A DNA stretch of 64,000 nt from Martelella sp. NC20. GTDB lineage: Bacteria; Pseudomonadota; Alphaproteobacteria; Rhizobiales; Rhizobiaceae. The number at the start of each line of letters is the position of its first letter. Positions within the stretch are counted from its first letter, which is position 1. Below the pieces are notes generated by a model, which worked only from the letters and a program-made list of their open reading frames with translations, was not told where the DNA came from and did not search any database. Of the stretch, positions 8,494-10,051 are shown piece after piece. The translations under genes and the position numbers were made by a program. Where the stretch lies: the NCBI RefSeq assembly GCF_013459645.1, contig NZ_CP054861.1, positions 3,026,001 through 3,090,000 of the forward strand, read 5' to 3'.

Positions 8494-8904
8494 ATGACTG
8501 CCCAGAAAGGCAAGGATCTGCTTTTGAAGCTGCATAATGGCAGCGCCTATGAAACCGTCGCGGGCCTCAGGTCGCGGCGATTGTCGTTCAACGCCGAAAC
8601 GGTGGACATCACCGATTCCGAAAGCGCCGGCCGCTGGCGCGAACTGCTGGCTGGCGCTGGCGTTCAGCGGGCCTCAATGACGGCTTCTGGTATCTTCAAG
8701 GATCAGGCATCCGACGAGACGGTGCGCGCGGCGTTTTTCGCTGCCGCCCTGGTGGAGGCGCAGATCGTGATCCCGGGGTTCGGCATCGTCGCCGGGCCCT
8801 TCCAGATTTCCGCACTCGAATATAACGGCCAGCACAATGGCGAGGTCCAGTTCGAGATCGCGCTGGAATCCGGCGGAGCGGTGAGCTTCGGAGCGGCGGC
8901 ATGA
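8494..8904 (+). CDS. Major tail tube protein, TP901-1 family (RcGTA g9 type)
   Basis: This 136-residue protein forms the hexameric rings of the tail tube. KGKDLLLKLHNGS, VAGLRSRRLSFNAETVDITD and SAGRWRELLAGAGVQRASM are the conserved opening of TP901-1-type major tail proteins, and the ending FEIALESGGAVSF is equally typical. A 34-base gap separates it from the previous gene, and GGAGAG precedes the ATG. Its last codons overlap the start of the next gene (ATGA). Confidence 0.91.
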   Translation: MTAQKGKDLLLKLHNGSAYETVAGLRSRRLSFNAETVDITDSESAGRWRELLAGAGVQRASMTASGIFKDQASDETVRAAFFAAALVEAQIVIPGFGIVAGPFQISALEYNGQHNGEVQFEIALESGGAVSFGAAA

Positions 8905-9254
8905 CGCGCGGCGGGCGGGCCAACCGCCACCGCGGCGAGGTGGAAGCGGTTTTCGATGGCGAGCGGCGGATATTGTGCCTGACGCTTGGGGCGCTCGCGG
9001 AGCTTGAGACCGCTTTTGCGGTGGACGGGCTCGGCGACCTTGGCAAGCGGCTTGCCTCGGGCGGGCTGAAGGCGCGCGATCTGATCGCGATCATCGGCGC
9101 CGGTTTGCGCGGCGGCGGCAATGCGATCGACGATGAGGATGTGGCCGCCATGGGCATGGAAGGCGGGGTTGCCGCTTATGCGGGCCTTGTCGGCGAGCTT
9201 CTGACTGTCACGTTTACGGGAGGGGATGCCCCCAAGAAGGCGGACCCTTCCTAG
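8901..9254 (+). CDS. GTA tail-assembly chaperone, GTA gp10 family
   Basis: The 117-residue protein carries HRGEVEAVFDGERRILCLTLGAL, then ELETAFAVDGLGDLGKRL and DLIAIIGAGLRGGG, the conserved pattern of the GTA gp10 (Phage_TAC_11-like) family. Such proteins bind the tape measure during tail assembly, like the lambda gpG protein. The natural stop is a TAG at 9252-9254 after a DAPKKADPS ending. A C-run (CCCCC, 9229-9233) lies seven codons before the stop, and the next chaperone is encoded in the -1 frame over this point, so a fraction of ribosomes may produce a longer fusion. Confidence 0.85.
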   Translation: MTRGGRANRHRGEVEAVFDGERRILCLTLGALAELETAFAVDGLGDLGKRLASGGLKARDLIAIIGAGLRGGGNAIDDEDVAAMGMEGGVAAYAGLVGELLTVTFTGGDAPKKADPS

Positions 9255-9463
9255 CCGCAGCGGCAGAGCCTGCCATCGCCGAACCGTTCCCCTGGCGAGC
9301 GGCGATCCATACCGGGCTCTGCACGCTGCGGCTTCCCCCTGAGGTGTTCTGGGCGTTGTCGCCGCTGGAGTTCGCGGCGATGGCGGGTGCGTTTGCGCCG
9401 GCCGAGGGCTTTCCGACGCGGGCGGCCCTTGATGACCTGATGACCCGCTTTCCCGACAGATGA
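9137..9463 (+). CDS. Phage tail-assembly chaperone (rcc01693/TIGR02216 type) with no visible start codon; probable frameshift product
   Basis: Open reading between the in-frame stop at 9134-9136 and the TGA at 9461-9463 encodes a recognisable small tail-assembly chaperone. Its core runs EPFPWRAAIHTGLCTLRLP, PEVFWALSPLEFAAMAGAF and TRAALDDLMTRFPDR, the pattern of the protein that follows gp10 in GTAs (g10.1). I read every codon upstream of the core: there is no ATG, GTG or TTG until a GTG at 9344, which lies inside the conserved motif. The frame is -1 relative to the upstream chaperone gene and overlaps its end. The simplest reading is a gp10-g10.1 fusion made by -1 slippage near 9228-9236; a non-standard start or a sequence error are alternatives. 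Coordinates give the open frame, not a proven protein start. Confidence 0.7.
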   Translation, partial: GCGRHGHGRRGCRLCGPCRRASDCHVYGRGCPQEGGPFLAAAAEPAIAEPFPWRAAIHTGLCTLRLPPEVFWALSPLEFAAMAGAFAPAEGFPTRAALDDLMTRFPDR

Positions 9464-9472
9464 GGACGTTTC

Positions 9473-10051
9473 ATGGACATTGACGAGACGAGTATCGATG
9501 GCGCGCGAGAGAGCGCCAGCGCGCTTCACGATGTGCTGCTCGATCTGGAAACCCAGTCCGATCGGTTTGCGGGCGCGCTTACCGGGGCGTTGAAGGATGC
9601 AACGCTTGGCGGCAAGGGATTGCAGACGGTGCTGGGCGATCTGGGTCGCCGGCTGAACGATCTGGCGCTGAACGCGGCTCTGAAGCCGCTCGAAGGCGTG
9701 ATCTCGAGCCAGATCGGGTCGCTGACCGAAGGTCTGGTGCAGGTCGTTGCCCATGCCAAGGGCGGCGTGCCGGGCAGGATCACGCCGTTTGCGGCCGGCG
9801 GCATCGTTTCAACGCCGACCTATTTCGGAATGAATGGCGGCCTGGGACTGATGGGCGAGGCCGGCAGCGAGGCGATCCTGCCGCTGAAGCGGGGAGCGGA
9901 CGGCTCGCTCGGCGTTGCTGCAGGTAGTGGCGGCGGCGCGCGGATTGTCTTCAACGTTTCGACGCCGGATTCGGAGAGCTTCCGAAAGAGCGAGGGACAA
10001 ATCTCGGCGATGCTGGCGCGGGCGGTGCGCTCCGGCCAGCGCAATATCTGA
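9473..10051 (+). CDS. Short tail tape measure protein (RcGTA g11 type)
   Basis: At 192 residues this is far shorter than phage tape measures, but it agrees with the short GTA g11 proteins. The second half contains the typical tape-measure C-terminus: a glycine-rich AKGGVPGRITPFAAGGIV, then PTYFGMNGGLGLMGEAGSE and AILPLKRGADGSLGV. The N-terminal half is helical (ESASALHDVLLDLETQ and on). It should span the inside of the tail tube and fix its length. It starts nine bases after the chaperone stop, with GAGGACG upstream. Confidence 0.9.
   Translation: MDIDETSIDGARESASALHDVLLDLETQSDRFAGALTGALKDATLGGKGLQTVLGDLGRRLNDLALNAALKPLEGVISSQIGSLTEGLVQVVAHAKGGVPGRITPFAAGGIVSTPTYFGMNGGLGLMGEAGSEAILPLKRGADGSLGVAAGSGGGARIVFNVSTPDSESFRKSEGQISAMLARAVRSGQRNI

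What the first reader, a model, noticed from the sequence alone, without database searches (positions are those of the whole stretch)
9137..9463. Second GTA tail chaperone has no start codon and lies in the -1 frame: possible programmed frameshift
The conserved chaperone core (EPFPWRAAIHTGLCTLRLP to MTRFPDR) is clearly encoded in 9233-9463, but between the in-frame stop at 9134 and a GTG at 9344 (inside the core) there is no ATG, GTG or TTG. The frame is -1 relative to the gp10 chaperone, which reads over the same bases until 9254. At 9228-9236 the gp10 frame reads GCC CCC AAG; a proline tRNA on CCC (9231-9233) can slip to 9230-9232, also CCC, giving a ...DAP-QEGG... fusion. Lambda-like phages make gpG/gpGT by the same -1 logic between tape-measure chaperones. 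A one-base error (four rather than five C) would instead create an ATG start at 9226, but would destroy the sensible gp10 ending.
Basis: partly seen in the sequence, partly recalled or inferred. Interest (0 to 1): 0.78.

Follow-up and report, generated by a model that had tools for sequence, protein, structure and literature searches.

The report
Frameshift joins two GTA tail chaperones
In this bacterium's virus-like gene transfer agent, the second of two tail-building helper proteins has no start signal and is most likely made only when ribosomes slip back one base near the end of the first, at a conserved site followed by a strong RNA hairpin that related bacteria also keep.

Summary
gp10.1 (PF09550/TIGR02216) has no ATG/GTG/TTG between its in-frame stop and its core, and lies -1 to gp10. 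The proposed CCCCC (9229-9233) is not conserved. 13 of 13 loci of the genus (Martelella) instead keep GGACCCTT (9242-9249); 10 of 13 have no start codon within 330 nt upstream. In the family, 70 of 78 -1-frame loci carry RRACCCTN5GCCGCAG-like elements: the slip site plus the 5' arm of a stem whose 3' arm is the codons of gp10.1's LRL motif. In the window it is 20 bp (9253-9272/9313-9333; z -6.4); 60 of 70 loci fold it with P>0.5, with covariation beyond permutation. Anti-SD complementarity peaks 6-10 nt upstream on average (16 nt here). Some other families have C_CCU_UUN or lambda's G_GGA_AAG without this stem, or an ordinary start codon. This is a lambda G/GT-like -1 frameshift with a dnaX-like signal; ten paper searches found no description in GTAs. 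There is no protein evidence.

The parts
8494..8904 (+). gp9, major tail tube protein, immediately upstream (tail tube, chaperone, second chaperone, tape measure: the order of lambda V-G-T-H, recalled)
   Evidence: PF06199 E 5e-42, TIGR02126
8901..9254 (+). gp10, zero-frame tail chaperone (117 aa)
   Evidence: PF11836 Phage_TAC_11 E 3e-26; fusion query found 5442 proteins at E<=1e-3, the 120 listed all PF11836
9218..9225 (+). GGGAGGGG, Shine-Dalgarno-like stretch, possible 5' stimulator (16 nt before the heptamer here)
   Evidence: anti-SD duplex energy -10.3 kcal/mol in -24..-4; classes lower than composition shuffles; weak (-2.4 to -6.6) in 9 of 13 Martelella loci
9242..9248 (+). GGACCCT, most likely -1 slip site (G_GAC_CCT; overlapping C_CCT_TCC at 9245-9251)
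   Evidence: GGACCCTT in 13 of 13 Martelella loci; motif in 70 of 78 family loci; proline codon CCT in 60 of these 70 against 35 of 455 proline codons elsewhere (set chosen on the motif)
9252..9254 (+). zero-frame stop TAG of gp10, one codon after the slip site
   Evidence: sequence
9253..9272 (+). 5' arm of the stimulatory stem, starting 4 nt after the heptamer
   Evidence: MFE -53.2, z -6.44, 0 of 200 shuffles as stable; pair probabilities of 9253-9262 0.80-1.00
9313..9333 (+). 3' arm of the stem (bulged A 9323); 9324-9333 covers the LRL codons of gp10.1
9248..9463 (+). -1-frame coding part of the gp10-gp10.1 fusion (187 aa product); conserved core about 9287-9460; stop 9461-9463
   Evidence: PF09550 E 8.5e-16, TIGR02216 70.1 bits; product
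9473..10051 (+). gp11, short tape measure protein, next gene
   Evidence: NF058675 RcGTA_tape 163 bits, below its cut-off of 220

Best explanation
gp10 and gp10.1 are the G and GT equivalents of this gene transfer agent. Most ribosomes read gp10 to its stop at 9252. A minority reach GAC_CCT (9243-9248), or CCT_TCC one codon later, and are held by the stem-loop 9253-9333 just ahead of them, possibly helped by an upstream Shine-Dalgarno-like stretch. The proline tRNA re-pairs from CCU to CCC, the frame moves by -1, and gp10.1 is added as a C-terminal extension, giving a 187-residue gp10-gp10.1 fusion in a fixed minor ratio. By analogy with lambda gpG/gpGT, both would bind the tape measure protein and the extension would recruit the tail tube protein. 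Shown here: absence of a start, the -1 frame, the conserved slip site, the covarying stem, their position and spacing. Inferred: that slippage occurs, at which codon, how often, and the chaperone function.
For: No start in 10 of 13 Martelella loci within 330 nt while GGACCCTT and the stem persist in 13 of 13. In the family 70 of 78 -1 loci reach at best >=10 of 14 for RRACCCTN5GCCGCAG, against 1 of 7332 background positions; the gp10 stop moves (0 to 78 nt after the heptamer) but the motif stays. 26 of these 70 have no start codon within 75 nt, 57 none except the TTG created by CCCTTG. Stem: P>0.5 in 60 of 70 loci, median 22 bp, mean z -4.26; pairing beyond permuted partners (10.10 of 12 against 8.99, maximum 9.36 in 5000); the LRL Arg codon, not used in choosing the loci, is CGG in 63 of 70 against 92 of 302 elsewhere. 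Same stem and register in nine loci of two other families. Seven of the ten loci without it have a local hairpin in about the same register (z -1.0 to -2.9). Anti-SD complementarity peaks 6-10 nt before the heptamer, but 2-6 nt before the start codon in 72 own-start loci. Strict heptamers in the overlap: 110 in 2292 codons of no-start loci, 15 in 1296 of own-start loci, 16 in 14872 of the gp10 body; they include lambda's GGGAAAG in 8 loci of 6 families, all 8 without a start within 75 nt.
Against: No proteomic, reporter or profiling data. The Martelella heptamer GGACCCT is not a strict X_XXY_YYZ: re-pairing of GAC to GGA is poor, so slippage would rest mainly on the proline tRNA. CCCTTGA relatives could start at the TTG, and databases hold Ciceribacter gp10.1 from it (P0125/P0126). 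One Martelella cluster (P0122) has a callable start shortly before PFPW, and L015 has a GTG at -6. Phylogenetically independent pairs of own start against slip motif give only median p 0.125. 17 loci have neither an own start nor a counted slip motif (two of them start at the core itself, two have CCGCCCT plus a 13-bp stem), and 21 have both. The stem was found by inspecting the same 70 loci, though z, permutation and other families are further tests; 10 of 70 lack it. The CCCTTTN and GGGAAAG classes show no excess structure; non-family heptamer loci as a group do not differ from own-start controls (p 0.53).
Confidence: 0.91

Rival explanations
1. gp10.1 is translated as a separate protein from a start codon by coupling to gp10 termination (TTG of CCCTTGA in relatives; a non-standard start such as ATC 9275 here).
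For: 39 of 70 family motif loci have TGA directly after the heptamer; 41 of 226 loci hold a TTG of CCCTTG; Ciceribacter proteins are held from it and P0122 has an M at the ATC place; many loci in other families have ATGA/GTGA overlaps, with SD complementarity best 2-6 nt before the start.
Against: 11 of 13 Martelella loci lack that TTG yet keep slip site and stem; so do loci with TAG/TAA or later stops (e.g. L032, L118, L130, stem). SD strength before these TTGs equals random positions (-3.60 against -3.33, p 0.68) and is weaker than before own starts (-4.76, p 0.03). The ATC is at that place in 2 of 13 loci.
Confidence: 0.045
2. Slippage occurs at the CCC of the CCCCC run (9229-9233).
For: The -1 frame is open from there on and the run is slippery in principle.
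Against: The run is not seen in the other 12 Martelella loci and ends 19 nt before the stem; the conserved element starts 13 nt further 3'.
Confidence: 0.025
3. Sequencing or assembly error, or a decayed gp10.1.
Against: Same arrangement in 10 of 13 loci of the genus and in other genera; core and neighbouring GTA genes intact.
Confidence: 0.005
4. Transcriptional slippage rather than ribosomal slippage makes the fusion.
For: None specific; same product possible.
Against: No long homopolymer at the conserved site (CCC only); a stem and an SD-like stretch are features of ribosomal stimulators.
Confidence: 0.01

Closest known systems
Phage lambda G/GT tail assembly chaperones (-1 frameshift at G_GGA_AAG, PMC7618472 passage)
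   Same: Two small genes between tail tube and tape measure genes, second without a start in -1 frame, slip near the end of the first, fusion product; eight loci in six other families carry the very heptamer GGGAAAG, five of them directly before the gp10 stop.
   Different: Here the site is RRACCCU and a stable covarying stem follows; [quoted passage not shown] Homology to gpG/gpT was not shown.
E. coli dnaX -1 frameshift signal
   Same: Three parts: SD-like element 5', slip site, stem-loop 3' (legend passage of PMC3711429).
   Different: Other gene and product logic, different heptamer; here the stem's 3' arm is conserved coding sequence.
RcGTA g10 / rcc01693 (Rhodobacter capsulatus GTA)
   Same: Same protein families.
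   Different: In family f59 (best scores to TIGR02216; probably Rhodobacteraceae, inferred) 27 of 29 newly fetched loci have an ATG/GTG within 42 nt before the core, the other two begin at the core with ATG or GTG, and frames are mixed (16 -1, 11 +1, 2 same). So the model RcGTA probably does not frameshift here; R. capsulatus itself was not examined.
Tail chaperone frameshifts of R. capsulatus phages and of Pseudomonas phage Adele
   Same: PMC8601537 calls the frameshift usual in its phages' tail chaperone genes (passage); PMC12846349 infers one in Vandenendeviridae from comparative genomics (passages).
   Different: True phages; Adele's motif is GTTTTT. The passages seen mention no covarying stem and no GTA chaperone.
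Listeria phage tsh frameshift at CCC_UGA
   Same: Proline codon just before the stop (PMC5009743 passage).
   Different: +1 direction, structural tail protein.

Membership tests
lambda-type tail assembly chaperone frameshift (G/GT) | two ORFs between tail tube and tape measure genes | tested here: met
   gp9 8494-8904, gp10, gp10.1, gp11 9473-10051
lambda-type tail assembly chaperone frameshift (G/GT) | second ORF without own start, in the -1 frame | tested here: met
lambda-type tail assembly chaperone frameshift (G/GT) | X_XXY_YYZ heptamer near the end of the first ORF | tested here: inconclusive
   window GGACCCT is a relaxed form; strict A_AAC_CCT/C in 48 of 199 -1 loci
lambda-type tail assembly chaperone frameshift (G/GT) | minor fusion product in a fixed ratio | not testable with these tools
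   needs reporter or mass spectrometry
lambda-type tail assembly chaperone frameshift (G/GT) | chaperone fold or homology | tested here: inconclusive
   Pfam TAC families (PF11836 is described as tail tube protein, GTA-gp10); model of gp10 poor (pLDDT 57.7), no hit at E<=0.001 in PDB or BFVD, several weak BFVD hits named tail assembly chaperone
dnaX-like three-part -1 signal | downstream stem-loop a few nt 3' of the slip site | tested here: met
dnaX-like three-part -1 signal | SD-like stimulator 5' of the slip site | tested here: inconclusive
   met on average over classes; in the window 16 nt away, weak in 9 of 13 Martelella loci
RcGTA-type gene transfer agent | conserved head-tail cluster | tested here: met
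   portal, protease, capsid, connector, TIGR02217/02218/02219, RcGTA tape below cut-off; terminase only a weak NCBIfam match and gp8 none
start-stop overlap (translational coupling) | start codon for gp10.1 at or near the gp10 stop | tested here: not met
   L012

The most novel reading that the evidence does not exclude
Gene transfer agents keep a phage-type ratio device under long-term selection at the RNA level. A hairpin written into the second chaperone's own conserved codons, together with RRACCCU, sets the gp10 : gp10-gp10.1 ratio across this family (Rhizobiaceae), and the device has been exchanged repeatedly between at least four solutions (RRACCCU plus stem, C_CCU_UUN, lambda's G_GGA_AAG, or a plain start codon) while the two-protein design stayed.
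Probability: 0.65. Interest if true: 0.7.

Novelty: new variant of a known kind. Interest (0 to 1): 0.62.

Why it matters
It would mean that the tail module of a widespread domesticated phage is expressed by recoding, that gp10.1 may be widely missed by gene callers in these bacteria (8 database proteins for its core, against 5442 for the gp10-gp10.1 fusion query; the searches select by shared words and length, so this is only indicative), and that GTA upkeep can be read from an RNA element as well as from proteins. Natural variants with different heptamers, with long, local or no stems, and with start codons form a ready panel for asking why some tail frameshifts need a stimulator and others do not.

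Tried and rejected
Local folding of 55 nt after the slip site: no excess (mean z -0.14 against -0.09 in the gp10 body); the partner lay further 3'. Pairing of GCCGCAG with 16S rRNA helix 45 (recalled sequence, not tested) was dropped once the stem explained the conservation. Excess structure in CCCTTTN, CCCGGGG and GGGAAAG loci: none on average. Natural gp10-gp10.1 fusion proteins: none covering over 72% of the query among the 120 listed of 5442. Rfam: only a chance mir-2387 match on the other strand (E 0.006, 29.5 bits against a gathering score of 93). Pattern RRACCCTN5GCCGCAGC in 81 family genomes: 14 have it, once each; 12 of the 14 lie just before a TIGR02216 match or 9 (G042's match is weak), two elsewhere (G028:C19, G071:C1:957399) and not followed. 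Structure of gp10 too poor to use; gp10.1 modelled at pLDDT 81.9, not searched. Codon-position test in the Martelella linker too short to tell (7, 6, 10 variable of 15 each in 12 loci). Independent pairs: direction as expected, not significant. Relatives of the gp10.1 core in phage records: 1 of 50,697; PDB by sequence for gp10: none.

Papers: searches listed no open-access paper describing frameshifting in GTA tail chaperones. Passages (term hits) were seen of PMC8601537, PMC3711429, PMC5009743, PMC10299305, PMC9022992, PMC10885494, PMC7618472, PMC3610622, PMC12846349, PMC8718954 and PMC10721106; PMC7296036 holds none of the six terms asked. Other listed papers were seen as listings only. Subscription papers on lambda and GTAs were not seen.

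Full report
What is there. The window lies in an RcGTA-type gene transfer agent cluster: HK97-type portal, protease and capsid, connector proteins, tail tube gp9 (8494-8904), gp10 (8901-9254), gp10.1, short tape measure protein gp11 (9473-10051), and the TIGR02217/02218/02219 tail-tip proteins. gp10 matches PF11836. The -1 frame 9137-9463 matches PF09550 and TIGR02216 from residue 50/51 on. No ATG, GTG or TTG stands between the in-frame stop (9134-9136) and that core. A search of named genomes returned contigs of the same lengths as two of the genus loci, labelled Martelella limonii and Martelella mediterranea (lengths), so the window's genus is Martelella; family f1 is then Rhizobiaceae (inferred).

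Sampling. TIGR02216 was searched in 13 genomes of the genus (13 with a match), 121 of the family (85), 247 of the order (149), 290 of the class (30) and 100 of family f59 (79); these sets overlap. Only part of the matches was fetched, mostly the better-scoring ones: 199 loci (L003-L201, the window's own among them) and 29 new f59 loci (L211-L239). Two loci (L097 no gp10, L100 no core) were dropped, leaving 226 loci with both genes. Named loci L202-L210 were looked at but not counted. Genomes without a match were not examined; weak relatives are under-represented.

The conserved junction. In the genus, 13 of 13 loci end gp10 with GGACCCT followed by TCCTAG (10), TCGTAG (1) or TGA (2). Ten have no ATG/GTG/TTG within 330 nt upstream of the core in its frame, two have the TTG of CCCTTGA, one a GTG at -6. 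In family f1, 70 of 78 -1-frame loci have a best score of at least 10 of 14 for RRACCCTN5GCCGCAG; of 7332 same-frame positions in the gp10 body one reaches 10. The zero-frame stop follows directly in 45 of the 70, three nt later in 12, and 9 to 78 nt later in 13, while the spacing between CCC(T) and GCCGC stays. The proline codon is CCT in 60 of 70, against 35 of 455 elsewhere (the set was chosen on the motif).

The stem. A scan for partners of positions 12-17 (mostly GCCGCA) showed one place, core +40 to +45, able to pair in 58 of 70 loci: codons of the conserved Leu-Arg-Leu of gp10.1. The arms vary together; examples are GCCGCAACAGGC/GCCTGTTGCGGC (L020), GCCGCAGGAAGCC/GGCTTCCTGCGGC (L131), GCCGTAGTTG/CAGTTACGGC (L123, two G-U pairs) and GCCGCATCCGG/CCGGATGCGGC (L108). 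With identical arm pairs counted once and eight loci left out, 50 loci pair 10.10 of 12 positions (Watson-Crick) against 8.99 with partners dealt out anew (maximum 9.36 in 5000); all 58 distinct arm pairs give 9.26 against 8.30 (maximum 8.66). Folding from the heptamer to core +52 gives the stem with probability over 0.5 in 60 of 70 loci, median 22 bp; mean z over all 70 is -4.26 and 58 have z below -2. In the window it is 20 bp with one bulge, -53.2 kcal/mol, z -6.44, 0 of 200 shuffles as stable. Of the ten loci without it, seven (L038, L042, L121, L133, L137, L140, L141) have a local hairpin in about the same register, with 55-nt z from -1.0 to -2.9. The same stem and register appear in nine loci of families f23 and f36 with at least 9 contiguous pairs (a best-of search over spacing and partner). 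Over 115 nt, motif loci have mean z -2.66 against -0.33 (48 own-start loci) and -0.72 (29 f59 loci); 55 heptamer loci of other families have -0.54 and do not differ from these controls.

Upstream element. Complementarity to the anti-Shine-Dalgarno sequence is highest when the 8-mer ends 6-10 nt before the heptamer (means -4.0 to -4.5, against -1.55 in the gp10 body). In 72 own-start loci the peak is 2-6 nt before the start codon. It exceeds composition shuffles in four classes: f1 50 of 70 loci, GGGAAAG 8 of 8, CCCTTTN 28 of 33, other AAACCC 12 of 15. gp10 tails are purine-rich, so part of this is composition; in the window the strongest stretch is 16 nt away, and in 9 of 13 Martelella loci it is weak.

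Other solutions. Strict heptamers in the overlap of the 199 -1 loci: AAACCCT/C in 48 loci; CCCTTTN in 34, of which 20 are formed by the PFPW codons themselves with the gp10 stop inside the core; GGGAAAG in 8 loci of six families. No-start loci hold 110 heptamers in 2292 overlap codons (overlapping pairs such as CCCTTTCCCT count twice), own-start loci 15 in 1296, the gp10 body 16 in 14872. Exactly one of slip motif and own start is present in 188 of 226 loci (113 + 75), both in 21, neither in 17. On a gp10/gp10.1 FastTree both states change often (31 and 41 changes), but independent pairs do not reach significance (median p 0.125), so the Fisher values must be read with that in mind. In f59, 27 of 29 loci have a start within 42 nt before the core and two start at the core, and frames are mixed (16 -1, 11 +1, 2 same), as expected if frame matters only where a shift must be made.

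Mechanism. The simplest account is a -1 programmed ribosomal frameshift with slip site, 3' stem and perhaps an SD-like 5' element. In many family loci the heptamer is A_AAC_CCU; in Martelella it is G_GAC_CCU, where the P-site Asp tRNA would re-pair poorly, so slippage of the proline tRNA from CCU to CCC, alone or with Ser UCC to UUC, is the likelier step (reasoned from codon pairing). C-terminal Asp-Pro is reported to lengthen the pause at termination (passage of PMC5009743); many relatives end in Asp-Pro-stop or Asn-Pro-stop, Martelella mostly in Asp-Pro-Ser-stop. Product: 187 residues. Function by analogy with lambda gpG/gpGT (PMC5009743 passages).

Rivals. A TTG start can explain CCCTTGA relatives only; it lacks an SD and is missing where the rest of the signal persists. 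Counter-evidence to my reading: database Ciceribacter proteins start there, and one Martelella protein cluster (P0122) has a callable start before AEPFPW. An error in this genome is excluded by relatives.

Novelty. Frameshifting between tail chaperones is well known in phages, including phages of R. capsulatus (PMC8601537 passage). The ten paper searches listed found no description for GTAs in the open-access library; subscription papers could hold one. The new points are its presence in GTAs, the covarying stem placed in the second gene's conserved codons, and the turnover of slip sites. I file it as a new variant of a known kind.

Noticed in passing
L202 (MW091529.1, locus 2118-2680): A sewage record filed as 'Bacteriophage sp. 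103231' carries the same AAACCCTTGAGTGCCGCAG junction; its gp10.1 is annotated from inside the core (2522), an example of how a caller can miss the frameshift.
   Followed up: partly
protein P0122: A 62-aa cluster 92% identical to the window's gp10.1 begins MAEPFPW, so some Martelella strain has a callable start three codons before PFPW; its DNA was not seen.
   Followed up: no
L220 (family f59): gp10 and gp10.1 lie in one open frame without a stop between them, with an altered gp10 C-terminus: a natural fusion, or an indel or sequencing error.
   Followed up: partly
L046 and L196: About 250 nt of GC-rich, repeat-like sequence (not tested) lie between the gp10 stop and the gp10.1 core; start codons occur near the core there.
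   Followed up: no
loci with CCCTTTCCCTGG (e.g. L062, L145, L154): The PFPW codons form two overlapping in-phase heptamers (C_CCU_UUC and U_UUC_CCU), so a core protein motif may double as slip site.
   Followed up: partly
window 9473-10051: The tape measure protein is only 192 aa and scores below the NCBIfam cut-off for RcGTA tape measure (163 against 220 bits).
   Followed up: no
window 9259-9327, minus strand: Weak Rfam match to mir-2387 (E 0.006), taken as a chance echo of the hairpin.
   Followed up: partly
G028:C19:9338-9357 and G071:C1:957399-957418: Two exact copies of RRACCCTN5GCCGCAGC away from the GTA place; chance or another use of the motif.
   Followed up: no
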